Assembly: GCA_021927905.1 (NCBI GenBank)
Contig: BLLK01000038.1
Location: forward strand, 1,674,001-1,738,000
DNA length: 64,000 nucleotides
Reading direction: 5' to 3'
DNA from: Chaetoceros tenuissimus
Taxonomy: Eukaryota; Bacillariophyta; Thalassiosirophyceae; Chaetocerotales; Chaetocerotaceae
Numbering within the stretch: position 1 is the stretch's first letter; every line of letters starts with the position of its first letter. Below, piece after piece: positions 28,514 to 52,875 of the stretch. A program made the translations under genes and the position numbers. The notes below the pieces were generated by a model. The model did no database searches, had not been told where the DNA came from, and saw nothing but the letters and a program-made list of their open reading frames with translations.

Positions 28514-29906
28514 ATGTCTTTCACAGAGGACTTAGCTCATAAGCTGCAATTGCTCAACCTGAACCATGCCTTGTACAACATTTTCGCCTATCTTCTCAAG
28601 CCTATCACCGCCTTCATCACCTTGTACCAAAGTAAGCCGGCAAACACTGCAGTCTACCTCCACCAGAAACGTATCCGTTATGGAAAGAACTTTGCATGTG
28701 CTGGTGGTCTATGGATGAGCGACTTTGAAGAAGTCAAGAAGAATCTACTTGAACCACAAGCTAGGACATATAAACTTGCACCTTCCCAACTTCGTAAAGA
28801 AGTCCTACCAAAGAGTTTTCTTTTGTCACTTTCTCAAGCAGGAGCAGGTGGTAATGGAGACTGGGAAGCATATAGAGCTGCTGTAAACGAAGTCATCTTT
28901 GATGATTCTGTCAAGGAACGTTGGGGAGATTCTACTGCTCGGAAGTTGATTGATGATTTGGCAGAGGAATATAAAACCCTAAAGATGGATGATAAGCTTG
29001 ATTTCTTTTTCGAGTCTAACGATTCTGGATTGAATATGTTTCTCGCAAAGTATCTTCACTACGTTATTTTCGGTATTGATCCGTCGAATGAAGAAGCTAT
29101 CAAGGCAATTGTGAAGTTCCATTACGAACTCAAGTCCGCTGCATATCATATCAATGTAATTAGTCAAATTCTTTTCAGAAAGAACGAGAGTGAAGTTGAG
29201 CAGGCATTATCAAAGGTAGCAAAAATTTATGAGGATAGTCCAACTATCTCTAAAATGAATGAAAATGAAGAGCGTTACAAGAATATGACCAAGAAAGAAC
29301 TCTCTCTACTTATGGTCAGCATCATGGTACGTGAAGATATGTCTTCTATTTCTCTTGATTTTTTAGACATTATTTCTAAACTGTTGTTCCTAGTCCCTTG
29401 CTGGAATGGTTGGGCCACAAACTCTAGCAACCATTGTGCTAGGAAACAGGGGTCTACCAGAATATGAAGGAAAGAAAACTGGATCTATTAAAGTAGAAAA
29501 CATCTGGGACACTATCGATCTTAACGATCGTGATGAGGTTTTGAAATATATGTTGGAATGTGGAAGACTAAGACATCCAGTTTCAAACACTCACAAAATT
29601 GCTCAAGAACCATTCGCTGCAGAAGTCAATGGAAAGAATGTCAAGTTTCCAAAGGGTACTTTAATTTACATCCCTATGCAATTAGCAAGTCTTGATGAGT
29701 CTGTCTATGGAGCTGATACATTCGAGTTTAATCATAATCGTGAGAACTTGTGTCCATTCAGCACAATCTTCCATTCCTTTGGAAATGAGACAAATGGTCG
29801 CATCTGTCCTGGAAAAGCAGTAGCGGAAACCATGATTGTTGATGTTCTTATTGCATTGGGTAAAGTTCGCCGTGGATTGACTGACCAAGCTTATGGAACC
29901 ATGTAA
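28514..29906 (+). CDS. Cytochrome P450-like protein, copy 2
   Basis: Exons 28514-29326 and 29394-29906 (intron 67 bp), 441 residues, with the same ECGR and FHSFGNETNGRICPG motifs as copy 1. Against copy 1 about nine residues differ (for example W20L, A/T in QARxYKL, I/F and P/S near 160). Unlike copy 1, the intron has no in-frame stop before it runs into the next exon. An unspliced message would therefore read on to 29467 in the wrong frame. It pairs tail to tail with the esterase gene at 30054 (147-bp gap). Confidence 0.8.
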
Positions 29907-30053
29907 TGTTCATCTTGAGACTGTAAAGAGGCCGTTCAAATTCTTCAACCTAATCACAAATATATAAACTTTACAATTTCATCTTTTCATATCTATCTTT
30001 CATTTTTGAAAAACATGCTTTTACGATATATATTTTGTGCAAACGATGGAACT

Positions 30054-31616
30054 TCATCGAATTTGATCAATTACGTTCTGTAATATGTAGAGTGCTTCTG
30101 ATGCACCTGCCTCGTTTTCGTAATGACACCAATCTTTCGGACTATCCCAAAGTGGGGAAATAATAAAGTTTGTATCTATATATTGAACATTACTTTCCTC
30201 TGCCACTTCTCTCAGTACTTTGTTGTACAAGTCAATGACATGAGGAGATCGCCAATCCGTTGGTGGCTAATATAATATTGGTGAGTCAAATATGAGAAAC
30301 GTTTCAAAAGAGACAATAAATACACATTATTGACAACTTACACATTGACCAACCATATCTCCAATGGGAATATAATGAACAGATCTCAAAATGATATGTT
30401 GTACTGAAGGCACATATGTTTGAATATTACCGACAACCTTCAACATGTCTTCTTTATACTGTGGAAGCAAGGTTGGCAAACCAGTAGGCCAACCAGCAGT
30501 CCATTGACCTAATGCAACAATCACAGTATTACATCCTTTAGCCTTGACTTTATTATACAAGAATATATCCTTGACTTGATGTGGAAATTGTGCATCAGCC
30601 CAATGAAATTGTATTCCTTCCTTGATTTCGCTAACATTCTTTGCAGATGATTCCATTTCTTGCATTTTTGTTTTGAATATTTGATTCCAATGATTGACTA
30701 GTACACGATTATGACTATCTCCCAGTGCACATATTGCAGTACCATTGCTATTCTTTTGGACAAGTTCCTTCAATTGACGTTCGTTCCATAATGTTTTTTC
30801 AGAGTTATGCCATTCAAAATGGTATGGTTCGAAGCGATCAATACTTGTTTTATCAGCACATCTCGGTTCCTTCTGTTCATTCTTTTCACGACAATTTTGA
30901 GGTTGATATCTTGTCCATAATGGTTTTGAATTTGTTTCATGGGATATCCATTGACCAAACAAAGAATCTCGTTTGCGAGTAGAATCCATATTTCTTGAAC
31001 TTTGTATTGTATTGATGTGTGCATCGTCCATTGTAATTCTATTATTCCCAGGATCTTCTAGACAAATAGAAGTGAAATTCAAATCAAATGTAAATTCATT
31101 ACAGAATAAAGCTATGATTTCCACAAAATACTTTTTGCCAATCTGTACATTTTGATATGCACCATTGATTATATCCTGATCTTTGTTTGTGGAATAATCA
31201 TAGGTCCACTCTAACATGTGTAGTGATGGTCCAGATAGTCTTCCTCTGAGTACTGGTTTGAAGCATTTACGATTTGCCTTGAGATGAATGTTTATCTTTT
31301 GTTTATGAGGCAAATGAACTATTTTCAAAATGTCATTTATCAAAGTTGCATTTAGATTCATGTGAATGACTTCCTCCAAAGTAGAATGATCGTCTTTTGA
31401 ATCAGGTATAGAGTAATTTTCCAAAGATGGCATATGTTCATGCTGAGATTTTGGAAACGACTGGTTGGCTAGTTCCTGTTTGTTCTTTGGTACATCTTGG
31501 ACGAGATGAACATCTTCTTCTTCCAATAGACTTGAGAATTGACTGATGAAACATAACGTAGAAAAGAGAACAATGAAAATAACAAGAAAGTATTTCATTG
31601 CTAAGCTCTGTTTCAT
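30054..31616 (-). CDS. Type II membrane SGNH / PC-esterase-like protein, copy 1
   Basis: Exon 1 31616-30342 (425 codons), intron 30341-30267 (GTAAGT...TTTAG), exon 2 30266-30054; 495 residues. One N-terminal membrane anchor (YFLVIFIVLFSTLCFI). The first lumenal half (about 100-215) looks like the Ig-like region of NXPE/TBL-type proteins. GDSHNR (about 298) is the SGNH nucleophile block. VALGQW follows, and DWCHY in exon 2 (about 473) can supply the catalytic Asp-x-x-His. Related plant TBL proteins O-acetylate cell-wall sugars. Substrate here unknown; a surface-glycan role is inferred. Convergent with the P450-like gene. Confidence 0.8.
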
Positions 31617-32048
31617 CCTTTATTATAACATGTCTGTATATATACGTAGTAGCTTTTAAATAGGAATACTGCTTTGCAACAGAGACTAATATTCTCGTAG
31701 CGATAGAGGATGTTTGTTTTGCAGTTTTGCAGAGAATGTTTGACCGTCATTGGAGAATCAGTGAGAGGTCGTCATAACGGCCATTTAACCTTTTTGATAG
31801 TCTCATTCTTTCATGTCAGGACAAGTTGTTTGGTTGTTTGTGAATACAAGTACTGATCGGAACTTGAAGTAAAGCATAGACAAACAAAACAAAAAATGTG
31901 GCATTTTATGGGTGAAAAAGTATAATTAATGCTCAGATTGAGTACTAGATTATTTTCATCAAACAAAACTTTGTGACATGAAAACCATCTCACCTCTTTC
32001 AAATTTCAATGAAAGAATATTTGATTCTTCTACTATTCTAGCGGTTGC
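31617..32048. other. Spacer between esterase gene and BTB relic
   Basis: 432 bp upstream of the esterase gene and downstream of the BTB relic; repeated at 36715-37146. A TATATA-rich stretch lies about 20 bp upstream of the start codon region (31635-31645). No gene. Confidence 0.4.
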
Positions 32049-32557
32049 CTATACTCTTGGTCTTGGTGCTATCAAAATAGAGGAATCATGCCAACGAGCA
32101 ATTATTTGATCATTGGTGAAATCCCATTTTTCTAAATCTATATCCTGTTCACTAAGACAATGCGCCCATGTATTATCAGTACAAAATCGCACAAAACGCC
32201 CGTCAGCGTCACGATGCCTAATTTTTTCCAGATATACCGTACCATCGACATCATAGTTGTATTTTAAGCTGAACTGCTCAACTTTTGCTAATGCAAACTT
32301 ATCCAACACATGCTTAAATTTTGTATCGGTTGTTTCATCCACGGCGATGTAAACATAAGTATCTTCGCCTATAGAGGCAGTTTGATCCAAGAATCGAATA
32401 ACCTTTGGAGGAGAAACTTCAAACGCATTGCGTTTTCTTGATGGTTTCTTCTTGGAAGGTGGTTTTTTGAATTCTTTTGATTGGATAGTACTCTTCAGTT
32501 CATTTGACTTTGCTGCCTTTTTCGAGAAGTAAGTCTCTATTGCTCTAGATTCAAGGC
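32049..32557 (-). pseudogene. 3' fragment of the BTB gene at the duplication junction
   Basis: Identical to 37147-37655, the last about 170 codons of the BTB gene (KKPPSKKKPSRKRN, SIGEDTYVYIAVDE, stop at 32049). Upstream of 32557 the reverse frame runs by chance into the antisense of the Ser/Pro minisatellite. No BTB domain and no promoter remain. It is a by-product of the tandem duplication. Confidence 0.85.
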
Positions 32558-32559
32558 TA

Positions 32560-32817
32560 CCAACAGCAACACCAACTGTTTCTCCCTCGAGACCACCTTC
32601 ACCAATGCCGAGTCCATTTCCCACAATGCGTCCAAGTGTTTCTCCCTCGAGACCACCTTCACCAATGCCGAGTCCATTTCCCACAATGCGTCCAAGTATT
32701 TCACCATCGCAATTCCCAACAGCAACACCAACTGTTACTCCCTCGAGACCACCTTCACCAATGCCGAGTCCATTTCCCACAATGCGTCCAAGTGTTTCAC
32801 CATTGGAATCACCTTGA
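32560..32817 (+). pseudogene. 3' fragment of the Ser/Pro-repeat gene
   Basis: About 86 codons of the repeat stalk ending at the same stop (SPLESP) as the gene at 24727. It lacks signal peptide, Cys modules and promoter. It differs from the parent array by loss of about one compound repeat, as expected for exchange within the minisatellite. Confidence 0.8.
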
Positions 32818-33169
32818 CGGACTTTAGTCTTTTGATGTACAAACTTCATTCAAATGGTATTTTGACATTTCATATTGGTCAATTCGGAGATTTAACCTGC
32901 GAATGGTATTTGATAAGTTAACTTCATGTTTCATCTTTATTATTTTTAGACTTCGCAACATATTTTATTCCTTTACTCTACATTGATTTCATTTGCTAAA
33001 TAAATCGCGATAGGTAAAATGTCTATTTTTTAGTATATAAAGTCTCAATAATCGTATATCACAATTTTAAATTATGAACGTGATTTTACCGCTGTCGCTT
33101 GATTTCATACATTATCTGTAACTCATTGATTATAGTCATTACCCTAATAATATAAATGAAATTCATAGA

Positions 33170-33369
33170 TTAGATCAAATCCTTCACATTCTTTGGCAAT
33201 TCCTCAATTTGAGTGGCATAGAACTGTTACAGTGAAAAGGTTGATGGATACACCTTTACGTCCAAAACGTCCAGATCTACCGATGCGATGAATGTAATTC
33301 TCGCGATTCATAGGCAAGTCAAAGTTAATCACAAGAGGACCTGCTGAATATCAATACCACGAGCAAGAA
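33170..33369 (-). pseudogene. Relic of the eIF4A 3' end, second copy
   Basis: Identical to 28072-28271 at offset 5098, with the same missing base and deletion. The decay therefore predates the tandem duplication. Confidence 0.85.
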
Positions 33370-33611
33370 TAATATAGCCTATTTAGTCGGAATGCCCTTT
33401 AATAAAAAGCATGAGAAGTCTGAAAAAGCGATCAGAGTGCCGTTTCAGAAGATCCAAGATCCAAAAAGAGCGAACAACTGCGAATTACATTCAACATGCA
33501 CAGACAACACACAGTAAACTCCCAATCAACACTTCCATAATTTCCATAGTGATCCTTTTTGATCAGCAAACGCTTTCAAATCATATCTATATCGAAGGAA
33601 TATAAAGTACC

Positions 33612-35004
33612 ATGTCTTTCACAGAGGACTTAGCTCATAAGCTGCAATTGCTCAACCTGAACCATGCCTTGTACAACATTTTCGCCTATCTTCTCAAGCC
33701 TATCACCGCCTTCATCACCTTGTACCAAAGTAAGCCGGCAAACACTGCAGTCTACCTCCACCAGAAACGTATCCGTTATGGAAAGAACTTTGCATGTGCT
33801 GGTGGTCTATGGATGAGCGACTTTGAAGAAGTCAAGAAGAATCTACTTGAACCACAAGCTAGGACATATAAACTTGCACCTTCCCAACTTCGTAAAGAAG
33901 TCCTACCAAAGAGTTTTCTTTTGTCACTTTCTCAAGCAGGAGCAGGTGGTAATGGAGACTGGGAAGCATATAGAGCTGCTGTAAACGAAGTCATCTTTGA
34001 TGATTCTGTCAAGGAACGTTGGGGAGATTCTACTGCTCGGAAGTTGATTGATGATTTGGCAGAGGAATATAAAACCCTAAAGATGGATGATAAGCTTGAT
34101 TTCTTTTTCGAGTCTAACGATTCTGGATTGAATATGTTTCTCGCAAAGTATCTTCACTACGTTATTTTCGGTATTGATCCGTCGAATGAAGAAGCTATCA
34201 AGGCAATTGTGAAGTTCCATTACGAACTCAAGTCCGCTGCATATCATATCAATGTAATTAGTCAAATTCTTTTCAGAAAGAACGAGAGTGAAGTTGAGCA
34301 GGCATTATCAAAGGTAGCAAAAATTTATGAGGATAGTCCAACTATCTCTAAAATGAATGAAAATGAAGAGCGTTACAAGAATATGACCAAGAAAGAACTC
34401 TCTCTACTTATGGTCAGCATCATGGTACGTGAAGATATGTCTTCTATTTCTCTTGATTTTTTAGACATTATTTCTAAACTGTTGTTCCTAGTCCCTTGCT
34501 GGAATGGTTGGGCCACAAACTCTAGCAACCATTGTGCTAGGAAACAGGGGTCTACCAGAATATGAAGGAAAGAAAACTGGATCTATTAAAGTAGAAAACA
34601 TCTGGGACACTATCGATCTTAACGATCGTGATGAGGTTTTGAAATATATGTTGGAATGTGGAAGACTAAGACATCCAGTTTCAAACACTCACAAAATTGC
34701 TCAAGAACCATTCGCTGCAGAAGTCAATGGAAAGAATGTCAAGTTTCCAAAGGGTACTTTAATTTACATCCCTATGCAATTAGCAAGTCTTGATGAGTCT
34801 GTCTATGGAGCTGATACATTCGAGTTTAATCATAATCGTGAGAACTTGTGTCCATTCAGCACAATCTTCCATTCCTTTGGAAATGAGACAAATGGTCGCA
34901 TCTGTCCTGGAAAAGCAGTAGCGGAAACCATGATTGTTGATGTTCTTATTGCATTGGGTAAAGTTCGCCGTGGATTGACTGACCAAGCTTATGGAACCAT
35001 GTAA
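33612..35004 (+). CDS. Cytochrome P450-like protein, copy 3
   Basis: Exons 33612-34424 and 34492-35004, 441 residues, translation identical to copy 2, including ECGR and the axial-Cys loop. Its promoter (33370-33611) is also identical to that of copy 2, so both copies should be expressed alike if the duplication is real and not an assembly artefact. Confidence 0.8.
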
Positions 35005-35151
35005 TGTTCATCTTGAGACTGTAAAGAGGCCGTTCAAATTCTTCAACCTAATCACAAATATATAAACTTTACAATTTCATCTTTTCATATCTATCTTTCA
35101 TTTTTGAAAAACATGCTTTTACGATATATATTTTGTGCAAACGATGGAACT

Positions 35152-36714
35152 TCATCGAATTTGATCAATTACGTTCTGTAATATGTAGAGTGCTTCTGAT
35201 GCACCTGCCTCGTTTTCGTAATGACACCAATCTTTCGGACTATCCCAAAGTGGGGAAATAATAAAGTTTGTATCTATATATTGAACATTACTTTCCTCTG
35301 CCACTTCTCTCAGTACTTTGTTGTACAAGTCAATGACATGAGGAGATCGCCAATCCGTTGGTGGCTAATATAATATTGGTGAGTCAAATATGAGAAACGT
35401 TTCAAAAGAGACAATAAATACACATTATTGACAACTTACACATTGACCAACCATATCTCCAATGGGAATATAATGAACAGATCTCAAAATGATATGTTGT
35501 ACTGAAGGCACATATGTTTGAATATTACCGACAACCTTCAACATGTCTTCTTTATACTGTGGAAGCAAGGTTGGCAAACCAGTAGGCCAACCAGCAGTCC
35601 ATTGACCTAATGCAACAATCACAGTATTACATCCTTTAGCCTTGACTTTATTATACAAGAATATATCCTTGACTTGATGTGGAAATTGTGCATCAGCCCA
35701 ATGAAATTGTATTCCTTCCTTGATTTCGCTAACATTCTTTGCAGATGATTCCATTTCTTGCATTTTTGTTTTGAATATTTGATTCCAATGATTGACTAGT
35801 ACACGATTATGACTATCTCCCAGTGCACATATTGCAGTACCATTGCTATTCTTTTGGACAAGTTCCTTCAATTGACGTTCGTTCCATAATGTTTTTTCAG
35901 AGTTATGCCATTCAAAATGGTATGGTTCGAAGCGATCAATACTTGTTTTATCAGCACATCTCGGTTCCTTCTGTTCATTCTTTTCACGACAATTTTGAGG
36001 TTGATATCTTGTCCATAATGGTTTTGAATTTGTTTCATGGGATATCCATTGACCAAACAAAGAATCTCGTTTGCGAGTAGAATCCATATTTCTTGAACTT
36101 TGTATTGTATTGATGTGTGCATCGTCCATTGTAATTCTATTATTCCCAGGATCTTCTAGACAAATAGAAGTGAAATTCAAATCAAATGTAAATTCATTAC
36201 AGAATAAAGCTATGATTTCCACAAAATACTTTTTGCCAATCTGTACATTTTGATATGCACCATTGATTATATCCTGATCTTTGTTTGTGGAATAATCATA
36301 GGTCCACTCTAACATGTGTAGTGATGGTCCAGATAGTCTTCCTCTGAGTACTGGTTTGAAGCATTTACGATTTGCCTTGAGATGAATGTTTATCTTTTGT
36401 TTATGAGGCAAATGAACTATTTTCAAAATGTCATTTATCAAAGTTGCATTTAGATTCATGTGAATGACTTCCTCCAAAGTAGAATGATCGTCTTTTGAAT
36501 CAGGTATAGAGTAATTTTCCAAAGATGGCATATGTTCATGCTGAGATTTTGGAAACGACTGGTTGGCTAGTTCCTGTTTGTTCTTTGGTACATCTTGGAC
36601 GAGATGAACATCTTCTTCTTCCAATAGACTTGAGAATTGACTGATGAAACATAACGTAGAAAAGAGAACAATGAAAATAACAAGAAAGTATTTCATTGCT
36701 AAGCTCTGTTTCAT
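35152..36714 (-). CDS. Type II membrane SGNH / PC-esterase-like protein, copy 2
   Basis: Exons 36714-35440 and 35364-35152, 495 residues, identical in translation to the copy at 30054: N-terminal anchor, Ig-like half, GDSHNR block and DWCHY. Same convergent arrangement with a P450-like gene. Confidence 0.8.
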
Positions 36715-37146
36715 CCTTTATTATAACATGTCTGTATATATACGTAGTAGCTTTTAAATAGGAATACTGCTTTGCAACAGAGACTAATATTCTCGTAGCG
36801 ATAGAGGATGTTTGTTTTGCAGTTTTGCAGAGAATGTTTGACCGTCATTGGAGAATCAGTGAGAGGTCGTCATAACGGCCATTTAACCTTTTTGATAGTC
36901 TCATTCTTTCATGTCAGGACAAGTTGTTTGGTTGTTTGTGAATACAAGTACTGATCGGAACTTGAAGTAAAGCATAGACAAACAAAACAAAAAATGTGGC
37001 ATTTTATGGGTGAAAAAGTATAATTAATGCTCAGATTGAGTACTAGATTATTTTCATCAAACAAAACTTTGTGACATGAAAACCATCTCACCTCTTTCAA
37101 ATTTCAATGAAAGAATATTTGATTCTTCTACTATTCTAGCGGTTGC

Positions 37147-38904
37147 CTATACTCTTGGTCTTGGTGCTATCAAAATAGAGGAATCATGCCAACGAGCAAT
37201 TATTTGATCATTGGTGAAATCCCATTTTTCTAAATCTATATCCTGTTCACTAAGACAATGCGCCCATGTATTATCAGTACAAAATCGCACAAAACGCCCG
37301 TCAGCGTCACGATGCCTAATTTTTTCCAGATATACCGTACCATCGACATCATAGTTGTATTTTAAGCTGAACTGCTCAACTTTTGCTAATGCAAACTTAT
37401 CCAACACATGCTTAAATTTTGTATCGGTTGTTTCATCCACGGCGATGTAAACATAAGTATCTTCGCCTATAGAGGCAGTTTGATCCAAGAATCGAATAAC
37501 CTTTGGAGGAGAAACTTCAAACGCATTGCGTTTTCTTGATGGTTTCTTCTTGGAAGGTGGTTTTTTGAATTCTTTTGATTGGATAGTACTCTTCAGTTCA
37601 TTTGACTTTGCTGCCTTTTTCGAGAAGTAAGTCTCTATTGCTCTAGATTCAAGGCTAGAACTAGCATCATGGCAATCATTTATCTTCTCCCTCAATTCTT
37701 TTTGGAATTGTGTACTGGACTTGCAGCTTTTTCCCCTGTGGAAATTAGGTTGACAACATCTTTTCTTGATGAGGAAATTGTTTCTATTTATCTGCATGCA
37801 GAGATCTTTTGCAGTGGATGAATCCAATACGCAACCACAATCTAGAACGACAACTACATCATTCAGCACTTTCTTACTAAAGTCACATCTCAACTTGACA
37901 GCTCCTGATAATGATGCCAAATCCTTGATTGTAGAGCTAAATAAAGGTGGCAACTTCTCAAACTTCTCAATAGCTGGTAAGAGCCAATTCAAAAGTTGAT
38001 GTTTTGGTATAACACTGAAATCTACAATCGATAACAAGCTCTGTACATGAAAAGGTGATGTAATGTCATTATCTTCAATATAGTCCAATATCAGAGCGGC
38101 AAAATCTGTTTCCGAAATGGTACCTGGTATAAAACGCGTAAGCAAATCGGCAAAGATGTCTATAGGTATATTGCTCCTTGCACTTCGAGTCATTTCTGCC
38201 AAGTATTCACCAAGAAAAAACAGAATATGTGCCTTTTCCTCATTGATGATTTTTTTCTCTCTTGAAAATGGATGGTACATCAAGAGAGAAAGAGCCTCCA
38301 GCATATCACTACTTCCATCATCTAGCCATAATTCGATATGATCAGCAAAAAATGAAGATCTCTTCATAGGTAATCTTTCGTTTGCAGCTTTTATGCACTC
38401 CTCATCACTAGCTTCTATTCCGTAAAAGACTATATTTGCATATGCCAAGCCATTATCAAGCTGAGTTCTCCAATAGTCCAGAATCACCTGTCGTAAACTA
38501 TCACATTGCATATAATCTGCAAACTTGCACAAAGGAACTAAACAATCTGCGTGAGGATACGGTTTCCAAGAATCATCAACTTCCAATATTCCATCATAGC
38601 AAAACCTTAGAAAGCGATCAATTTCATTGAAGCAATCTGTTGATAAATGAATATTCATTTGTCCATTGGCAGATTCAGCAAATCGATCTCCTTCAAATGT
38701 AAGTTTGACAAGGTCGCATGAAAGAAGAAAACTTTTATGTGCATGGATGCGTCGAGTTCTAGCTTCTTCTACTTTTTCTTTGTTGCTTTTGGCCTCTTTT
38801 CTTGAACCAAGCTGTTCATGGAATATCAGTTCGATATCAGAACCTCCTAGTGTCTTATCTAGAAGACGATCGAAATGAGACTTTGGAGTTTTCAAGAGGA
38901 TCAT
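37147..38904 (-). CDS. BTB/POZ-domain protein A
   Basis: Single exon, 585 residues, ATG at 38904. BTB fold at about residues 20-120: SDIELIFHEQ, IHAHKSFLLSCDLVKLTFEG, an IDRFLRFCYDGIL helix pair. After it comes a helical region with a BACK-like flavour (about 130-350), a Cys cluster (CGCVL, KKRCCQP), a Lys/Arg-rich stretch (KKPPSKKKPSRKRN, possibly a nuclear signal) and a conserved C-terminal domain (SIGEDTYVYIAVDE). BTB proteins often act as substrate adaptors of cullin-3 ubiquitin ligases; that role is family knowledge, not shown here. It is the intact parent of the fragment at 32049 and a divergent paralogue of the gene at 39524. Confidence 0.85.
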   Translation of the reverse strand: MILLKTPKSHFDRLLDKTLGGSDIELIFHEQLGSRKEAKSNKEKVEEARTRRIHAHKSFLLSCDLVKLTFEGDRFAESANGQMNIHLSTDCFNEIDRFLRFCYDGILEVDDSWKPYPHADCLVPLCKFADYMQCDSLRQVILDYWRTQLDNGLAYANIVFYGIEASDEECIKAANERLPMKRSSFFADHIELWLDDGSSDMLEALSLLMYHPFSREKKIINEEKAHILFFLGEYLAEMTRSARSNIPIDIFADLLTRFIPGTISETDFAALILDYIEDNDITSPFHVQSLLSIVDFSVIPKHQLLNWLLPAIEKFEKLPPLFSSTIKDLASLSGAVKLRCDFSKKVLNDVVVVLDCGCVLDSSTAKDLCMQINRNNFLIKKRCCQPNFHRGKSCKSSTQFQKELREKINDCHDASSSLESRAIETYFSKKAAKSNELKSTIQSKEFKKPPSKKKPSRKRNAFEVSPPKVIRFLDQTASIGEDTYVYIAVDETTDTKFKHVLDKFALAKVEQFSLKYNYDVDGTVYLEKIRHRDADGRFVRFCTDNTWAHCLSEQDIDLEKWDFTNDQIIARWHDSSILIAPRPRV

Positions 38905-41332: not shown

Positions 41333-44300
41333 TTAGTTCACGTTCTGTAAGGCTTCACGTCTCCCACGACGTTGATGCTTTGCTGGAGTTCCCTTCTCCA
41401 ATTTAGATGGGGCGGCGTCTGCAGTATTTTCATCATCAAACTCCATTTCTTCCTCCTCCTCAGACACGTCATCCTCTTCTTCCTCCTCAGAAACCTCATC
41501 CTCCTCTTCTGAAGATTCCTCCTCAATCTTCTTCTTTTGGTTCTTTCTCCTTTGAACTCTCTTTTTAGCTTTCTCAGCCTTCTTCTTTGCCTCCTCGTCT
41601 TCTAATCCTGCATCAGATTGCTGCTTCAACTTCTCTTCCCATTCTTCAATTGCTTGTTTCAGCTCAGGCTTGGCGAATTTCTTAGACTTGAGTGCAATCG
41701 ACATAAAGTTCTTCAAAACATCCTCGTCAAACAGAGCATCCTTGTAAAGGTTGAAGTGATCGTTGAGAATCTTGATACATTTTTCATTGCACTTGACATT
41801 GGCAAGACAGTATGCAATGTTTGCTTTTTGCGAAATTGAGGTGCTTTTCGGGAATCGTTGACAGAGCTTGTCTACCAACATCTCTGTCTGACGTTCCTTC
41901 TTGATAAAGTTCAAAAGGAAGGACATGATTGCTCTAAAGTCCTCTTTCTTGACAGACATGCTACTGAGCCTACTAACAATCTCTGGTAACAAGTTGTAAA
42001 TTGGATTGTTACTTCTCTTGCTCAACTCATGGAACAAAAGTCTTGCCATATCTCTGATTCTGACTTCTTCATCCCTCAAGCACATTGCAATCTCACATAC
42101 TTGCCCCTTCACCTTTACCATATCGTTGAGGATAAGATGAGTGAGAACCATCAGAGTGTGCAATCTGACACGGATGGAGTCATCTCTGAGACACGAGTAG
42201 ATTCTTGATGTGTAAGGTTCAACCTCATTAGGGAAACGAAACGCCAAGTCTCCAAGTGCAATAACAGTGTTTGCGCGCAGAGTGACATCCTTCTCCGGTG
42301 CCTTTGCCAGAGCAGTAAAGAGAAGTGGTAGATGCTTCTCACAAAAGGATCTCGAGATACACATGAACTTGCAGAGAGTCAAAACTGAAGTCTGCATCAA
42401 AATTTCAGAGGAGAAGACTCCACTCTCGTTTGCAACTACTCGAAGAACAAGAGGTGTGAAGAGGTCAATCATTCCTCTTCCAATAATCTCCTTCTCTGCA
42501 ATTTCTGCAACCTTATTTTCAGTTTCAGCCTCCGCAGCTTGTGCAACTCCGAGTTCCTTCTCAATGTCATCTTCGTCGTCAGATCCATTCTCTCCAGCCT
42601 TTGCCATCTTGGCCTTATCTGCCTCTTCTTGCTTTGCTACAGTGCGAGCAGCATTTGCACTGCGTACAGAACCGCTAAGTGCCTCGGAGTAGACTAGAAG
42701 CTTAAGTGCAATGTGTCCAAGCACAAAGAAGAAACGTGAAAGACGCAAGGAATGGCATTGATTGCTTCCAAATGTTGAAGCTTGCATTGCGGTAATGATG
42801 ATCTTGCACACTTGTTCAGGTGCAGGACAGACTGCAAAAATAGCATTAATACCCTCTTCTGCAGCACCAAACCATTCACGAGTATCGTTCTCATTCTCGT
42901 CATCGCACCAATCACCTTGAATGACGAGGCACAATCTTTCAACAATCTGCTCCAAGACAAGAAACTTTGCTGATGTAATATCTGGCTTGACTCTGGAGAC
43001 TCTCTGCAACGCATACGCAGCAGACTTTGCTGTGGCCCAATCTCTATGCTCTTCAGTATAATCTCCAAGACCTGCTTGAAGAAGATGACGCAATCTACTT
43101 GCACTATCAACAATGCCAGAATCAGAAGTTGCCCCCATAGAAAGAATCGTCATTGCAATGGATCTTGCTCTTCCGGATGCTTTTGCTGCAATAGACCACA
43201 AAATTAGGAATACTTCTGCTGGGATAACTTCTTCCTTTACCAATCTAGAAATCGCCTCTTCAATAGAAGTCTTTTCACTGGCATTTGCCTTGCCTACAAG
43301 TCTCAATAGATTATCCACGATTTGCTTTGGAGGTAACTTTCCACTTCCATTGGTTCCACAAATAAAAACATCAATAAATGCAGTCATGACTTCATCTTGT
43401 ACACTCTTTTCATCGGACCACATGAGTGAAAGTGCTTGCTTGATACCAGTCACTGCACATGGAAGTTGAAAATGACGAGCTCTTACAAAGAAACGAAGCG
43501 CCTCAGTGACATCACTCTTGTTGGAGGATAAAAGCATACTCTCGAATGCTTCATTTGCATTCTCAAATGTATCAATAAAGTCCAAAGCAGAAGAGAGAAA
43601 CTTGTACACTTGGAGTTTCTGGATAAGTTCCTTTTGTGCTTCATCGTTGCTTTCTTGAAGCGAGTTATTCGTTTCATACTCGGCAATGGTTGCTTTGATT
43701 GTGGCATTTTCAATCTGATACTTTTCATCCTCGTCATCCTCTTCCAAAGCTTCAATAGTTTCCTTCATTGCATCCTTCATATTGGATGGCAAGTTGTCCA
43801 AAATAAATTCTCTTACTTCCGCCATCTTTTCCTTATATGGAGCTGGACTCAATGAGTCTGTGAATGGATTATTTTCAAGAACAAGAGTCAAGACCTGAGA
43901 GGAATGAGGGTTAGATAAACGACTCTAAACAACACTTCACATACAACAAATTCACTCACTTGCATAGCACTTCTTCGAACCATGACAGTCTTGTCTTGAA
44001 GACGATCAATCGCGAGCTGAGTAACAGGAATCAACTTTTCAATAGGAAGGCACTGAGCTTGAATGATGGAAGCCCAAGTCTTCATAACTGCAACACGAGT
44101 ATATGAACTGACATCATAAATGTGTTCCAAAAGGATATCGTACAATTTATCCTTCAAGTCTGCCAATTTCTTCTTCTTCAATTGATCGTCACCAATGATT
44201 TCTTCATTATCATCTTCATTTCTAGAAACAATTTCCGTCTCTTCTTTGCAACTCATCAATAAGTGTCCAATGGCGACAACAATGGCAGATCTCAAGTTGT

Positions 44301-45466
44301 AAGGTTCAGACTGCAAATGTGGCATTACAAGGGAAATATTCTCAAGAACAAGTTGAGGCTTCTTTTCAGCAAGTTCATTGAGGAACGGAGCAACATTACG
44401 AATCCCACTTGCTTTTCCAGTTGCATCAGAAGAGGAAGCACTCCCATCAAGTCTTCCAATTTCCCTCAAGAGCTCAATCGACAATTTATCCTCACTGTCA
44501 TGAAAGAACCCACATAATTCCGCAGCAAGAGGTGCCATGTGTTCATAAGAATGCATCATATCAACCAAAGCCGCAACAACGGTATTCAACAAAACATCAC
44601 TCGTTTTCAAAGTCATTCCAATCATTTGCAACGCTACATCTCCAAACGCCGCTTTTCTCGCCGTAGCCCCTGTACAATTCTCCAACATTTGATAAGCAAT
44701 ACGACATGGAATCGCAATGACACTTTCATCGGGTACACCCCTTTTCCATAAATTAGCATTACAGTTCGACATGGCTTTACAAGCAGTCATCATGGCATGT
44801 GCACATTGTTCTCTAGTAGATTGAATCATGGATTGAAATTCCTTTTCTTGCGATTTGGAGAGTGTCTTGCCAGCCTTCATTTCTCCCTCTGTGAAAATCA
44901 TGATTGTGTATAGCATGTATAGGTGACATGCGAGTGCATCTCTGAATGCTTGTGGTACAATGTACACATTTGAATTTTGAGAATTGATTTGATTTGCTGT
45001 TTGTTCACTGCATGAAGTTAGGATCGAGCTTAATTTGACAACCGCTTTGCAAATGGCTGTAATGAGTCTTGTCCGTGTGGAAGTCGCCAAGGATGACGAT
45101 TTTCTATTTTTGGAAATTCATTAGCATAATATTTGAAAAAGGAGAATACAGCAAACGACGAGAATGAAGCTGTGTACAAACTGCTTACCTGACGAGAGTA
45201 TAAAGGGCTTGAATACGATCTTCACAATTCCAAGGCTGACTGTCATCTGCGTCAAAGGAATTTCCTTCGACAGTCTTTTCAAAAAGTTCAATGCCTCCAC
45301 TGGAAAGAGTACGATTTCCCTGTTCCAATAATATAACCAGCTGTACGAATGAATCGGCTCTGGTAGCTTCGTCATCATCTGCAAAGCCTACTGGATAAGG
45401 AAGAAGGTCATATGGGTCTCGTTCCAACTCTTGAAACGATGATGGTATTGGAAAACTTGATTCCAT
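41333..45466 (-). CDS. NCAPD2: Condensin complex subunit 1 (CAP-D2)
   Basis: Exons 45466-45189, 45103-43960 and 43894-41333 (introns 85 and 65 bp), phases 2 and 0, 1327 residues. CAP-D2 is a HEAT-repeat subunit of condensin I, which with SMC2/SMC4, CAP-G and CAP-H compacts mitotic chromosomes. The clearest signature is the Cnd1 core at about residues 1040-1110: MVLTHLILNDMVKVKGQ, CLRDEEVRIRDMARLLFHEL, NLLPEIVSRLS. It is followed by a Lys/Glu linker, an acidic run (SSEEEDEVSEEEEE) and a basic end (RRGRREALQNVN). Alpha-helical HEAT pairs fill the rest. Length is normal for the family. Confidence 0.95.
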
Positions 45467-45972: not shown

Positions 45973-47016
45973 ATGATGAAGACGAATTATGCAAAAGATG
46001 AAGAAGAGATAGATGCCTTTGTAGGAAAGAGAGAGCATCTAACTCAAATTGAGTCAAAAAAGAAATATTTCCTTCTTGGTGCAACTTTCATTTATATATT
46101 TGTATTTGCTGTGATTATGATATCATTCATATGGTATGGCAACCTCCACAACATGATGAATACAACAAAGCAACAAGAGGACTTTCAATATCCCCTCTTC
46201 AACTCATTCAACCCACATCAAAACTCATGGTGCCCTTATGCGGAATGCAATAACAGTCCATTATGCAAGCCATGTAATCAACGATTTCTATTCATCTTGT
46301 CGCCTGGAAGAGCTGGTTCTACATCACTCTTGACTACATTTAACTTACTACCATATGTTCGACTATCTGGTGAAAACAATGATGCGATATTCCATGCCTA
46401 TGAAATTATGCATGCTCTTGATCAAAAACAAAAAAATTTTCAATATGATGAAGGAAATGAAGACGGGCCATGGATGCATAATGCGATTCCAAAACAAAGT
46501 CTAGCTTGTACGTCTCAAAAGATCATGTCTACCATCAACCCTCCAAAACATGAGTTTCTAACTGATCTGAGCAACGAAAGAGAGTTGAAAACACATGAAG
46601 ATGATACAATCATTGGAGCAAAGATGATTCGGCTACAATCGAGTGAGTGGGATGCACAACATGCTGTCTCATACTTTAAGGAACATTTTCCATGTGCAAA
46701 GTTCATTGTAAACTCTAGAGACCCAAAAGCAATTCAGTCTTCGAGGATTAAAGTTGGTTGGAAACAAGATTTACCGAGTATTAAACAGGAGTATCAATTT
46801 CTCAAAAGATTTGCAAAGCTGATGGGTGATGACAGAGCGGTCTTTTTGAAGATGGAAGAGTGGAGTAATGATGTGAGCAATTTAAATGATGTAATTGAAT
46901 GGTTAGGATATGAAGACTGCAAGCTAAGTCATGTACAACATCAGAATTTTGATGGATATGGAAAGGATACGTCAAACCCACTTTCTGGTGAATGTAGGCT
47001 TCGAGGAGCGAGTTAG
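45973..47016 (+). CDS. Type II membrane sulfotransferase
   Basis: 347 residues, single exon. Cytosolic N-terminus, one membrane span at about 35-57 (LLGATFIYIFVFAVIMISFIW), then a lumenal catalytic domain. LSPGRAGSTSL (about 108-118) is the PAPS 5'-phosphosulfate loop. NSRDPKAIQSSR (about 245-256) is the 3'-phosphate site. Two CxxC-like pairs (CNNSPLCKPC) precede the P-loop. The family transfers sulfate from PAPS to glycans or other acceptors in the Golgi. Acceptor unknown. Confidence 0.85.
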   Translation: MMKTNYAKDEEEIDAFVGKREHLTQIESKKKYFLLGATFIYIFVFAVIMISFIWYGNLHNMMNTTKQQEDFQYPLFNSFNPHQNSWCPYAECNNSPLCKPCNQRFLFILSPGRAGSTSLLTTFNLLPYVRLSGENNDAIFHAYEIMHALDQKQKNFQYDEGNEDGPWMHNAIPKQSLACTSQKIMSTINPPKHEFLTDLSNERELKTHEDDTIIGAKMIRLQSSEWDAQHAVSYFKEHFPCAKFIVNSRDPKAIQSSRIKVGWKQDLPSIKQEYQFLKRFAKLMGDDRAVFLKMEEWSNDVSNLNDVIEWLGYEDCKLSHVQHQNFDGYGKDTSNPLSGECRLRGAS

Positions 47017-47338: not shown

Positions 47339-49486
47339 ATGAAATTAAAAGTACCACTGATACTCAAATTATTAGCATTACATAGAAAAGCATTTGCTAC
47401 ATCTCCCAATGACGACGATGGCACATCTTTCTTAGTGATTGCAGATATGCATTCCATGTCGGACTTTGCATTTGAAGATCAATGGCCATCAGATTCTGAT
47501 TATTTGCAACAGACATGGAATGACTTGACTTCGATTGTAGAAAATATCAAGCACAATTATGCTGATACCGAAATAGTTTTAGCTCCTGGAGATATAACAA
47601 CATTTGGAAAGATGAGCAATTACAAGATTCAAAACATGACTGGCATCGAGGATGAAAATGATGCAGTCTATCATGCAACCAAGACAACTTTTCATAAAAC
47701 CAATGAATTGTATCAAGAGGCAGGATTTACTACATTTCTCCCATGTTTAGGAGACCATGAGATTGGTGGAAACAAAGGGTTTCGTGTCGATGGAAAACGA
47801 ACCAAATTTTCTTCCATAGATTCTTATCGTCAGGCTTGGATTGACAGTTTCATTAAGAAAAGTGGAACAAATGCATTCAAGTTTCAAACAGATATTAATG
47901 GAGTGTCATCTAGACCAAATGATACAGATTTTGAAGGAACTTCCTATGCATATAGACATAAAAATTCACTCTTTATCACGTTGGATATCTTCTTGACAGT
48001 CAACAATGGAGCAGAAAACTATTTTGATCGAGAAAATGGATATGGAGGCGAAGGAGCCATTACATGCTCACTACAAGGAAATCATCTGCAATGGTTTGAG
48101 AATATTTTGATTGCTGCGAGAAGCGATGACTCCATCAAACATATCTTTGTACAGGCGCATGTACCAATACAACATCCTGTTCGTAAAGCTAGATGCTCAG
48201 GGCAATTTCTAGATGATCAGACCGAGAGTGACTTGTGGAAACTTATGGAGAGGTACAATGTCGACATTTATTTTGCAGGAGAAGTACATGCCACAACTGC
48301 TACAAAGTCAAAGTCTTTTGGATCATCTCTTGTTCAAATTGTATCACAAGCAAAGTTTATGTCAGGATTCTTGACCGTGGATACTTCAGATGATACTATT
48401 ACTGTGAAGCAATTCAAAGAAATTGGATCCAAGCAAAAATATAACAATGAATATAGTCAGAATGGATTCTTGACTATCAACAAGTCAGATGCTTCAAATG
48501 TACAGATATCATCTGGGGGTGAATTAGAAATTCTTGACGATGCAGTTCCTCTTATTCATTTTGACTTTGAGGCTATACACGATATGTCTGAAAGACAAGT
48601 CGATGGAATGCAGAATGATGATAGCTTGATTGCTTATAGTGAGGTGGTTGGTAATATGGTGTGTACGGAAAGCATTCACAACAATGGTTCATTTGGTCAG
48701 CAGTACGATTCACAGATTACAAACATTGATATTGTCCAAGGACGCAATGAAAATACATTGGCGGGAAAGTTCTCACAATCCAGCCGTATGGGGGTTCATA
48801 GTGTTGGGCCATTCACTGCTGGAATGGTACATTCCATTTCCTTCTGGATGAAAACAGGCGAGGCATCAAAGGAGATGGTTCTACTTTATTTTGGACCAGA
48901 CTACAAGAGCAGCAATAAAGATTCGCTACGCGTCACCTTAAACAACGGAAATCTTGAAGTCCGATTTACTCGCTCGTCTGCGCGATTCCGTTTGGTTGAG
49001 GAAAAGATGCTATCAGATAATCAGTGGCATAAAATTGTGATGAGTATGCCTAACAAAAGCTGTAAATACTCAGAGGTTGATATTTACATTGATGGTAAAA
49101 AGTACGAATCTGAACAAATAAGAGGGGAAGATAATTACATATTCTTCCACACTGATGGAAGACTCAACGTAGGAGGCTATGGATATGCAAAGTATACGAA
49201 TGTAGATGATTCGATGGAAAATTTCGTTGGAGAAATGGACGACATAAAGATGTGGTCAAAGTCTTTTGAAAAGGCAAAGTCTCCAACAGTTCAATCTCCT
49301 TGCTGGAACAAGAAACAATATAGATTTATAACCTCAATTGGTGAAAAATCGTGTAAATGGCTTTGTCGAAGCAAAAAGGAAGCAAAAGTCAAAAGACGCC
49401 AAGTGAGATATTGCAAGGGTGATGTATCTAGCAGTTGCTGCGAGGCTTGCAACGCAGGTCCTCGATGCCGGGAGATTACTAGTTAA
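47339..49486 (+). CDS. Secreted calcineurin-like phosphoesterase with LamG-like domain and C-terminal Cys module
   Basis: 715 residues, single exon. N-terminal signal peptide (LILKLLALHRKAFAT). Metallophosphoesterase domain at about 28-350 with the metal-binding blocks in order: ADMHS, APGDI, LGDHE, QAHVP and GEVHA. In the usual family these read DxH, GD, GNHE, H and GHxH, so the third and fifth are variants (GDHE and GEVH). A concanavalin/LamG-type beta-sandwich follows at about 395-645 (FWMKTGE, DNQWHKIVMSMP, DIYIDGKKY, GEMDDIKMWSKS), which usually binds glycans. The last 60 residues are a Cys module (CKWLCRSKKE, RRQVRYC, CCEAC) of the kind repeated in the protein at 24727. Likely an extracellular phosphatase or phosphodiesterase. 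Confidence 0.88.
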   Translation: MKLKVPLILKLLALHRKAFATSPNDDDGTSFLVIADMHSMSDFAFEDQWPSDSDYLQQTWNDLTSIVENIKHNYADTEIVLAPGDITTFGKMSNYKIQNMTGIEDENDAVYHATKTTFHKTNELYQEAGFTTFLPCLGDHEIGGNKGFRVDGKRTKFSSIDSYRQAWIDSFIKKSGTNAFKFQTDINGVSSRPNDTDFEGTSYAYRHKNSLFITLDIFLTVNNGAENYFDRENGYGGEGAITCSLQGNHLQWFENILIAARSDDSIKHIFVQAHVPIQHPVRKARCSGQFLDDQTESDLWKLMERYNVDIYFAGEVHATTATKSKSFGSSLVQIVSQAKFMSGFLTVDTSDDTITVKQFKEIGSKQKYNNEYSQNGFLTINKSDASNVQISSGGELEILDDAVPLIHFDFEAIHDMSERQVDGMQNDDSLIAYSEVVGNMVCTESIHNNGSFGQQYDSQITNIDIVQGRNENTLAGKFSQSSRMGVHSVGPFTAGMVHSISFWMKTGEASKEMVLLYFGPDYKSSNKDSLRVTLNNGNLEVRFTRSSARFRLVEEKMLSDNQWHKIVMSMPNKSCKYSEVDIYIDGKKYESEQIRGEDNYIFFHTDGRLNVGGYGYAKYTNVDDSMENFVGEMDDIKMWSKSFEKAKSPTVQSPCWNKKQYRFITSIGEKSCKWLCRSKKEAKVKRRQVRYCKGDVSSSCCEACNAGPRCREITS

Positions 49487-49740
49487 GAATACATGATTCT
49501 CGATTTTGGAAGATTTCCATCTTCATGACTCTTACGTAACAAAATAATCTTCTTATGAATATTCAAATGCAGTATTTGCGTTGACATACATTTATGTATC
49601 ATCTAGTCATGAGTATTGGACGTAATCGTGGTGACTATCCTAGTCGCTACAAATCAACTGCCATTCTTGTAGTATTACATTTTCGTTTTCCTCCGCCAAT
49701 GATGATGAAAATGGAATTTTTTCATCTCCTTCAATCGTAG
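49487..49740 (+). other. Spacer and possible 5' exon of the STING-like gene
   Basis: The frame of the STING-like gene is open from 49644 but holds no ATG before TM1. An ATG at 49610 opens a different frame (MSIGRNRGDYPSRYK) ending at 49740. A weak donor (GTGGTG or GTGACT near 49630) with the AG at 49739-49740 would join it in frame. Unproven. Confidence 0.3.
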
Positions 49741-50884
49741 AGACAGAGAATGCAACCTTGGAACAGTTCTGGTTCGACTATTTCCAGTGGGAACCGAAAG
49801 TGCCATATGTAATTCGTGAATTTATCAACCAGCCCAAGGCGCCTTTCCTCAAACGAAATTCAGGAATAGCAAGAGAACTAGTCTTTTTCTTCTCATTGAT
49901 TACTATTGGATCCATCATAGTAGGATATAGATGGGAAATCATTAATCAAAAAGAATTCCTAGCTTCCATGTTTTTCGCATCTGGCTTCATTCCAGCTGTA
50001 CAGATGGCACTCTTTGAAATACTACCTCGGAAATTGAAAAGAAGAAAAGTAGAGGTCGATGATTACCTATCTGGACTGTTGGCATAGCCTTTCTTTCAGT
50101 GGCACTGGCAGTGTATCCTATTCCAGAAGAAGAAGAAGATGCCTGGATCGTGGTTGTCGGAAAAACGTTATTTGAAGCTGGACTCATTTACTTTGTGACA
50201 CGAGTATTATTCTTTGTTCCAAATCCAAATAATGAAGTTCGAGATCTAAAAGAAGAAATCACAGCCCTAAAACAATCAATGGCGATTGGGCTTGCTGATG
50301 GATACTTTTGGAATCTCGTCAAGGAAATTGCAATTGACATTCGTGATGCAAATGGACCACAAAATAGCTTAAAGTTGGAGTATCCTAGACAAGGTGAAGC
50401 ATTCAAGCTAATCAAACAATTTTTGGTGATCGTACCAAGATCTCTTGATTGGGAGAAAGAGGATCCAATTGCCGATTTCATTAAAGGTATGAAGAATGAA
50501 GGATACTTCAAAGATTGTCGCATTGAGAAAAGTCTCATGCATGGAGACAGCTCTAGAATTAAGTGGGTGACAGATGTCAATTTGGATCCTAAAGCTGTTG
50601 CTAGTAGTGATGGTGTTCAAAGAGGTATCGTTGTCGATATTCCAACAACGCTTACTGCTCTGCTCATGAACTTGAAGTCTCAAGCAACATCATCTACTGA
50701 AAAAAAAAAATTTACACTTGAAGCTAGTTCATTTAGTTATCGAATTTCATGGCAACTAAAGAAAAGTAATCTTGATTCTATTGTAAAAGTTGTGGAAGTG
50801 GAAAATTTAAATGATCTTTTGGGAAAAATACGTGATGTCGACCAACTCTTGAATTCAACTGATCAATTTATCGACAATCAGTAG
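49741..50884 (+). CDS. STING-like protein: four membrane helices plus STING-type cyclic-dinucleotide-binding domain (one frameshift)
   Basis: The first open frame (to the stop at 50085-50087) encodes TM1 (LVFFFSLITIGSIIVGY) and TM2 (SMFFASGFIPAVQMALFEIL), ending in KLKRRKVEVDD. The second frame, open from 50063, encodes TM3 (IWTVGIAFLSVALAVYPI) and TM4 (VVGKTLFEAGLIYFVTRVLFF). A soluble domain of about 215 residues follows. It shows STING features in order: GLADGYFWNLVKEI (like the GLAWSYYIGYL helix), AFKLIKQFLVIVPRS (like the KLHILLPLDC strand), RIKWVTDVN (lid region), and GIVVDIPTTLTALL (like VLEYATPLQTLF, whose Glu and Thr contact the ligand in animal STING). The two frames overlap by about 25 bases with no plausible intron, so a frameshift, sequencing error or decay lies near 50060-50082. 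The assignment is by eye. Confidence 0.6.
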
Positions 50885-50952: not shown

Positions 50953-52875
50953 TTACTTATCCAAGAAATCGACTGGGAACTCCGCATCACTTGACTCCCA
51001 TAGTTTACAAAACTTTCGATGACGACCGCAAAATGAATTGCACATGATCTCACCTATCGGTTGCCAATAACACTTGGATTCGGTATTAGTTTCGAAGAAC
51101 GAGCAGTTAACTGTTTCGCTAGACCTTTTTCCGTTCTTCAACTGAAACGTATGAGTACGATCTACGGGGCAGAGTCCATCTTTTCGGAGCTTATTCCTTA
51201 GCTTCTTTCTTAGTGTATTGTATGTTTGAAAATCAGTGGAGAGCAAATTTTGTTTCTCCCCAATATCATCTTTGAGATTGTACAATGCTTCCCATTTCAA
51301 ATGGTAATCTCGAATGAATTTATAATTTCCATATCGCATTGCTGCTTGGTGTTTGCCTTTCTTATTTTGATGCCTATACACTGGCAAATATGTTCTTGGA
51401 GGGTTGGCGGAACTTGAGACTGCATATTCCATGAAACTTTTGGAATCCTGTGCCGAATATTCGTCTATTGTCACGTCTATGAAATCCCCTATGGTTGCAT
51501 AGATGTCCGCTAAAGAAATGAAATGCTCGTTGCGTATTTCACCTGCTGGTAAAACATTGTCGTATCTCATTACAAATGGAACTCTGGTTGAGGCAGCAAA
51601 GTAAACTTGAGCAGAGACAATAAAAATCAACAACAAAATAAGTACTAGAGAGTCAAAACGCACCTATGACCTCCTTCATACATAGATCCTTTATATCCCC
51701 GAAGCAAAGGATTAGGATTATTCATGTTCAAACCTCCATTGTCACTGGTAAATATGATGATTGTATCTTCGATTTGGTTCGTTTCTTCCAACTTTTTCAA
51801 TAAAGATCCTATGATGAGATCCATTTCATACAACAAATCTAGATGTGGATCTCCATACTTTCCAGCAACTTTTGTTCCATTGAAATAATTATCAGGAGGA
51901 GTATGAGGAATATGCACGCTTCCAAGTGCAAAGTACATGAACCATGGCATGTCTGGATGGTTGTCAATATGATTATCGAGAAACTTTTCTGCCTTTCGAA
52001 ATATTTTCTTATTGTACAAAGTGCTATCCCAATGAATCATACCCTAATGTAATACAGCGCCACACGTTAGAGCACAAGAAATGCTAAATTTGTTCATTTG
52101 AAAAGTGGTGATGCTTCAATACTCACTTCACCACTACGCAATATCTCAATGTCATTTCCTGCTAAACTAATGTGTTCTCCTTTTTCCCAATACTCTATTT
52201 CATCTTCTTTCCCAACGAGTTTGCCATTTCGGAAGAATGCATATGGTGCAGCCTGAATTCCAGAAACAGAGTAAAATGAATCATCAAAGCCGTGGTCACG
52301 AGGGCCTAGCAAGATATTTTACGGTAGGTGTGTGTCAATAACAAATATTCTTTGCATTCATTCATTCCTTTCATCCAACGATACGTACCATTCAGCAATC
52401 GGCCATTCTCCCAATCTTGAGAGCTCAAAAATTTATCTCTATCAAATGTACCTGGAAGACCGCCACCAATATGCCATTTGCCAAACATACTTGTACGATA
52501 TCCACCAGTTTTCATCATGGATGCAATACTTTTCTGCCTTCCATAGAATTGACTTTGTCCTTTACGATTGATATCCCATGTTCCAAAAGGTAAGGTTCCG
52601 CGATGTGGAAAATTACCACTGAGTAGCATATATCTACTTGGTGCACATAGAGATGTACTATGTGCATCCATAAATGTGACACCCTTCTCTTGAAGTGCAC
52701 GTATATTTGGCATATCCACAATTTCATTTCCCCAGCCTGGAACATTTTCAGTGCCTACATCATCTGCCAGAATTATCAAAACGTTTGGTTTCTTGTCTGT
52801 TTGTCCAACTACTCCTGTGACGATTAGGAATAGTAGTATTTGTATGACCAAAGATAAAGTGAAGAGTGTATTCAT
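50953..52875 (-). CDS. Secreted sulfatase (formylglycine type)
   Basis: Four exons: 52875-52389, 52305-52127, 52043-51664 and 51583-50953; introns 83, 83 and 80 bp; 558 residues. Signal peptide (LVIQILLFLIVTGVVG). Sulfatase blocks in order: LIILADDVG (metal Asp pair), LCAPSR (Cys that becomes formylglycine), FGKWHIGG, HIPHTPP, FTSDNGG and GGHRVPFVMR. The family hydrolyses sulfate esters of glycans or steroids. The C-terminal about 75 residues are Cys-rich (CPVDR, NCSFFE, MCNSFC) and loosely recall the Cys module of the proteins at 24727 and 47339. Arylsulfatase-like; substrate unknown. Head-to-head with the ABC1 kinase gene. Confidence 0.93.

What the first reader, a model, noticed from the sequence alone, without database searches (positions are those of the whole stretch)
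49741..50884. A diatom STING-like protein with animal-type topology
Four hydrophobic helices followed by a soluble domain showing, in order, several STING features: the GLA-x-x-[YF] helix, the 'hhLIKxFLhhhP' strand, an Arg-rich lid region and a 'VVDIPTTL' segment matching the ligand-contact 'VLEYATPL' of animal STING. Known: STING domains sense cyclic dinucleotides in bacteria and animals, and scattered bacteria-like STINGs are reported in protists. Inferred: this gene could be a cyclic-dinucleotide receptor in a diatom immune pathway. No cyclase gene is seen in this window.
Basis: partly seen in the sequence, partly recalled or inferred. Interest (0 to 1): 0.85.

Follow-up and report, generated by a model that had tools for sequence, protein, structure and literature searches.

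The report
Bacteria-like STING gene in a diatom
A diatom chromosome carries a single-copy gene for a membrane-anchored STING protein whose sensor domain resembles the bacterial version, so this alga may sense bacterial cyclic dinucleotides; the assembled gene, however, contains a reading-frame break that must be resolved before it can be called intact.

Summary
The gene is real and the STING call is right. The 273-codon frame 50063-50884 matches Pfam prok_STING (PF20300) at E=1.9e-8, 34.9 bits against a cut-off of 27.1. No other family comes near, and animal STING (PF15009) does not match. A fold predicted with 19 bacterial STINGs fetched here matches only STING structures at the top (Z up to 14.7). 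The host is a diatom (silicon transporters). The gene is single-copy on a 2.47 Mb contig with an intron-bearing neighbour.

"Animal-type" needs correcting. Four N-terminal hydrophobic helices are present as in animals, but the sensor is bacteria-like (GLADGYF, lid RIK, VVDIPTTL). That combination is the published "bacteria-like STING" (blSTING) class, already reported from stramenopiles.

Caveat: helices 1-2 and helices 3-4 plus the sensor lie in different frames. No GT-AG intron joins them, so there is a frame break between 50063 and 50084 (assembly error, frameshift allele or recent pseudogene).

No cGAS/Mab-21, SMODS or GGDEF cyclase was detected in the genome (the Mab-21 search lacked a working positive control). 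Best reading: a membrane-bound receptor for 3'3'-cyclic dinucleotides, probably bacterial c-di-GMP. Ligand and output are inferred. New member of a known kind.

The parts
49644..50084 (+). Open frame (no in-frame ATG) encoding the N-terminal segment with hydrophobic helices 1 and 2; stop TAG at 50085-50087. The 5' end of the gene is unresolved; candidate acceptors at 49740/49746 with an upstream ATG are possible.
   Evidence: Six-frame translation, hydropathy, intron enumeration
49866..49922 (+). Hydrophobic segment 1, IARELVFFFSLITIGSIIV (mean Kyte-Doolittle 2.0)
49956..50012 (+). Hydrophobic segment 2, FLASMFFASGFIPAVQMAL (1.65)
50063..50084 (+). Interval in which the reading frame must change (-1); overlap of the two open frames. 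No GT-AG intron gives the right phase and no slippery heptamer was seen by eye.
50066..50122 (+). Hydrophobic segment 3, PIWTVGIAFLSVALAVYPI (1.82)
50141..50221 (+). Hydrophobic segment 4, AWIVVVGKTLFEAGLIYFVTRVLFFVP (1.66 at best window)
50063..50884 (+). Main open frame, 273 codons plus stop: segments 3-4, linker, STING cyclic-dinucleotide-binding domain, C-terminal helix; no animal-type C-terminal signalling tail
50282..50707 (+). Pfam PF20300 prok_STING match
50288..50308 (+). GLADGYF stem-helix motif; F82 (50306-50308) is at the position of the base-stacking F92/F171 of FsSTING/PcSTING and Y167 of human STING
   Evidence: alignment; residue roles from PMC8748872
50555..50563 (+). Lid motif R165-I-K, nearest to the class II RXR lid of bacterial STING
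   Evidence: class definition PMC8748872
50630..50653 (+). VVDIPTTL; D192 (50636-50638) is taken, by motif, as the counterpart of the guanine-specificity residues D169 (FsSTING) and D252 (PcSTING)
   Evidence: residue roles from PMC8748872

Best explanation
This is a diatom nuclear gene for a bacteria-like STING (blSTING). Four N-terminal membrane helices anchor a cytosolic STING domain. By homology it forms a dimer that binds a 3'3'-linked cyclic dinucleotide, most likely c-di-GMP from associated or invading bacteria. In this model F82 stacks on the base, D192 reads guanine and lid residues R165/K167 close over the ligand; lid closure drives oligomerisation at the membrane. Output would have to be independent of the animal C-terminal tail, which is absent. 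Shown here: STING domain homology, STING fold in a homology-assisted model, conservation of key pocket positions, four hydrophobic segments, single copy, diatom host. Inferred: dimerisation, ligand, membrane location, defence role. Unresolved: whether the frame break at 50063-50084 is an assembly error or a real lesion.
For: PF20300 at 34.9 bits against a cut-off of 27.1, E=1.9e-8, with no competing family. A bacteria-only HMM gives 3.6e-8 against 0.48 for the best of 1000 shuffles. Invariant L77, A78, Y81, P125, F224 and near-invariant N84, D192, P194 across 19 bacterial STINGs. AlphaFold2 with that alignment gives pTM 0.64, with much of the domain core at pLDDT 70-94. The top 50 Foldseek rows are all STING. 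VIA Z is 14.7 to bacterial STING and 12-13 to coral, human and choanoflagellate STING. Host is a diatom: 11 silicon-transporter matches, best E 2.3e-211. Single copy on a 2.47 Mb contig; the neighbouring condensin gene has a canonical intron. Published blSTINGs have the same architecture and domain affinity and occur in stramenopiles (PMC10732462). Choanoflagellate STINGs without a cGLR bind c-di-GMP at about 1 uM (PMC12424679). No SMODS or GGDEF was found in the genome, which favours an external ligand source.
Against: The frame break and missing in-frame ATG could mean a non-functional gene. The lid motif is RIK, neither the c-di-GMP-specific RX(Y/F) nor an exact RXR, so the ligand prediction is uncertain. 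The structure model depends on the bacterial alignment: the same protein folded alone gives pLDDT 34. The lid (residues 157-180) is below pLDDT 50. The Mab-21 and OAS searches had no ringing positive control, so a cGAS-like enzyme is not excluded. No expression or relatives in other diatoms could be examined.
Confidence: 0.7

Rival explanations
1. A decaying or recently inactivated blSTING: the -1 frame break at 50063-50084 is real, so only fragments (two-helix peptide, or a two-helix plus STING domain protein from an internal start) could be made.
For: No canonical intron joins the frames and there is no in-frame ATG upstream. Most silicon-transporter matches in the same assembly are over 1.3 kb without stops, so base accuracy is generally good.
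Against: The 273-codon and 147-codon frames on either side are both open, and the pocket residues are intact, which argues against long decay. A single missing base is a common assembly error.
Confidence: 0.2
2. A receptor in an endogenous pathway: the diatom makes its own cyclic dinucleotide with a diverged CD-NTase, as in some choanoflagellates and animals.
For: Some choanoflagellates have a cGLR next to STING (PMC12424679). Mab-21 and OAS searches here lacked a working positive control.
Against: No SMODS (control genomes ring), no Mab-21 domain, only a sub-threshold Mab-21_C scrap with two stops, and no cyclase among the flanking genes examined. Published blSTINGs typically occur without CD-NTases.
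Confidence: 0.15
3. A recent transfer of a bacterial transmembrane-STING, with helices gained independently or from the donor.
For: Bacteroidota carry short STINGs with N-terminal hydrophobic segments (several loci), and the diatom sensor domain is bacteria-like.
Against: No bacterial sequence is close: identity 17-24%. The tree places the diatom on a long branch with weak support. The published class has four helices against two in bacterial TM-STING.
Confidence: 0.07

Closest known systems
Eukaryotic bacteria-like STINGs (blSTINGs) of stramenopiles, haptophytes, Rhizaria, Amoebozoa and choanoflagellates (PMC10732462)
   Same: Matches PF20300 and not PF15009; four N-terminal helices; sensor closer to bacteria than to animals; no CD-NTase detected in the genome.
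   Different: No diatom is named in the main text (the word does not occur); the species lists are in supplements that I could not open. The gene here has a frame break in the assembly.
Choanoflagellate STINGs without a cGLR (Stephanoeca, Diaphanoeca; PMC12424679)
   Same: Bacteria-like sensor domain; no detected cyclase partner.
   Different: Those were shown to bind 3'3'-c-di-GMP; the ligand is untested here.
Bacterial CBASS STING (TIR-STING and TM-STING; PDB 7un9, 8hwj, 6wt4, 7ebd)
   Same: Sensor domain fold and pocket motifs, including the D-[IFM]-P-T-T-L segment.
   Different: Four helices rather than TIR or two helices; no neighbouring CD-NTase; longer lid loop and an extra C-terminal helix; lid RIK.
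Animal STING (TMEM173)
   Same: Four N-terminal helices; same fold (Z 12-13).
   Different: No PF15009 match; bacterial-type pocket motifs; no C-terminal signalling tail.

Membership tests
blSTING / STING superfamily | PF20300 prok_STING domain above curated cut-off | tested here: met
   34.9 bits against 27.1; same in whole-genome search, 35.7 bits
blSTING / STING superfamily | STING monomer fold | tested here: met
   Foldseek and VIA: Z 14.7 to SfSTING, on a model helped by bacterial relatives; without them no usable model
blSTING / STING superfamily | V-shaped homodimer | not testable with these tools
   Only monomer prediction was on offer
blSTING / STING superfamily | Base-stacking aromatic, lid Arg and DxPTT pocket residues | tested here: met
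   F82, R165, D192, P194-T195-T196 aligned; lid third position is K, not R/Y/F
blSTING / STING superfamily | Binds a cyclic dinucleotide | not testable with these tools
   Needs a binding assay
blSTING | Four N-terminal membrane helices in one protein | tested here: inconclusive
   Four hydrophobic segments present but split over two frames with no GT-AG intron
Animal STING (TMEM173, PF15009) | PF15009 STING ligand-binding domain match | tested here: not met
   No hit at E up to 10 for the protein; the genome search was also empty but without a ringing control
Animal STING (TMEM173, PF15009) | C-terminal tail with TBK1/IRF3 motifs | tested here: not met
   Protein ends with the last helix, model residues 250-272
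CBASS STING operon | Adjacent CD-NTase gene | tested here: not met
   Pfam on flanking ORFs within 41-58 kb gives condensin, sulfotransferase, metallophosphatase/laminin G, sulfatase, ABC1 kinase, MINDY and one ORF without a match

The most novel reading that the evidence does not exclude
Diatoms carry a working, cyclase-free, membrane-anchored STING that senses bacterial c-di-GMP through a hybrid pocket (class II-like basic lid RIK with a bacterial DIPTTL reader) and signals without a C-terminal tail; this would be a molecular receptor by which diatoms monitor their bacteria.
Probability: 0.35. Interest if true: 0.75.

Novelty: new member of a known kind. Interest (0 to 1): 0.5.

Why it matters
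How diatoms perceive the bacteria they live among is poorly known (general knowledge), and whether and how bacteria-like STINGs work without CD-NTases is an open question stated in PMC10732462. If this gene is intact, an alga offers a direct test. It also adds to the documented spread of STING across eukaryotes. The class itself is already published; no paper found in the library searched here reports a diatom case.

Tried and rejected
phmmer of the protein against PDB sequences found no STING; a profile with bacterial relatives was needed. Protein scans of viral contigs and genome contigs found no relative by tblastn. The single plasmid tblastn hit (E=5) lies in a resolvase-like ORF and was rejected. 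The NCBIfam MreC hit (E=0.044, 13 bits against a cut-off of 407) was rejected. The second genomic match on C43 (E=0.3) was rejected as noise. The sub-threshold Mab-21_C scrap on C38 has two stops and is rejected. Folding the protein alone gave pLDDT 34, useless. A tree with bacterial sequences leaves the diatom unplaced on a long branch. Considered and rejected: an intron at the frame junction (no GT-AG pair in phase; the only GC-AG options start at 49984 inside helix 2) and programmed -1 slippage (no slippery heptamer seen). Literature searches for a diatom STING found none.

Full report
What is there. The window lies in a 41.0 Mb, 68-contig assembly, on a 2.47 Mb contig. The genome has 11 silicon-transporter matches (best E 2.3e-211), including a triple transporter frame, so the host is most likely a diatom. 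Neighbouring genes are eukaryotic: the condensin subunit gene at 41333-45090 has a GTATGT...CTCTCAG intron. G+C at the locus equals that of its surroundings (0.37-0.38), so this is not a bacterial contaminant.

STING identity. The frame 50063-50884 encodes 273 residues. Pfam prok_STING matches at 34.9 bits, E=1.9e-8, above its curated cut-off; nothing else matches, and animal PF15009 does not. PADLOC and NCBIfam give nothing credible. The gene is the only PF20300 match and the only copy found in the genome.

Comparison with bacterial STINGs. I used a 16S-type pattern to reach Bacteroidota genomes and fetched 19 PF20300 loci. Aligned with the diatom protein they share L77, A78, Y81, P125 and F224 throughout, with N84, D192 and P194 nearly invariant. 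An HMM built from the bacterial proteins alone finds the diatom protein at E=3.6e-8; the best of 1000 shuffled versions reaches 0.48.

Pocket. By the crystal structures in PMC8748872, an aromatic residue stacks on the base (F92 FsSTING, F171 PcSTING, Y167 human), an Asp (D169 FsSTING, D252 PcSTING) and a lid Arg set guanine specificity, and the lid motif divides class I, RX(Y/F), c-di-GMP-specific, from class II, RXR. The diatom has F82, D192-I-P-T-T-L and R165-I-K, so a class II-like basic lid. The assignment of F82 and D192 to those residues is by motif. The loop around the lid is longer than in most bacterial relatives and is modelled with low confidence.

Fold. With the bacterial alignment AlphaFold2 gives pTM 0.64, with much of the domain core at pLDDT 70-94 and membrane segments and lid low. 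All 50 top Foldseek and all 50 top VIA rows are STING (one VIA row carries an uninformative title). Bacterial chains lead (Z up to 14.7, 164 residues, 3.2 A); coral, human and choanoflagellate chains follow at Z 12-13. The protein folded alone gives no usable model, so this evidence is not independent of the alignment; the Pfam match is.

Topology and the frame problem. Hydropathy finds four segments, the architecture reported for blSTINGs. But segments 1-2 are in the frame open from 49644 to 50084, and segments 3-4 with the sensor are in the frame open from 50063. The frames overlap for 22 bases and differ by -1. Enumerating GT-AG, GC-AG and AT-AC introns gives no GT-AG solution; remaining options would remove coding membrane segments or use non-standard sites. 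The first frame also has no ATG; an upstream ATG with an intron ending at 49740 or 49746 is possible but unsupported. Most silicon-transporter matches in this assembly are intact, so the assembly is good but not perfect. I cannot tell an assembly indel from a frameshift allele or young pseudogene.

Mechanism. PMC10732462 defines blSTINGs as eukaryotic STINGs with PF20300, mostly with four N-terminal helices, found in stramenopiles and other protists in which CD-NTases are typically not found, and suggests that they detect exogenous cyclic nucleotides. PMC12424679 shows that two choanoflagellate STINGs from species lacking a cGLR bind 3'3'-c-di-GMP specifically. Here, SMODS and GGDEF searches of the genome are empty while control genomes ring. 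Mab-21 and OAS searches are empty but without ringing controls; Mab-21_C gives one sub-threshold scrap. None of the flanking ORFs examined is a cyclase. I infer a membrane-anchored receptor for bacterial 3'3'-cyclic dinucleotides, probably c-di-GMP. The absence of a C-terminal tail means that animal interferon-type signalling is not expected; the output is unknown, oligomerisation at the membrane being the likeliest step.

Verdict. Real STING, correctly spotted; better called bacteria-like with four helices than animal-type. New member of a known kind, in a group where the held literature names no case; intactness and ligand are open.

Noticed in passing
window 27462-37700 (approx.): Tandem duplication of about 5,098 bp: ORF starts at 28514, 29406, 30327 and 32049 recur exactly 5,098 bp downstream; a 300-nt unit at 27462 recurs at 32560 with 99% identity, so the duplication is recent or an assembly artefact.
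   Followed up: partly
window 27054-27761: Array of repeats with alternating 60 and 96 nt spacing ahead of the tandem duplication.
   Followed up: no
window 47339-49486: Protein joining a calcineurin-like phosphoesterase to a laminin G domain and a Cys-rich tail, an unusual-looking combination, directly upstream of the STING gene.
   Followed up: partly
window 45973-47016 and 50953-52875: A sulfotransferase and an N-sulphoglucosamine sulphohydrolase-like sulfatase flank the locus.
   Followed up: no
G000:C17:442278-446357 (L149, L150): Three silicon-transporter units in one 1,459-residue frame; the third match carries one TGA and one TAG.
   Followed up: no
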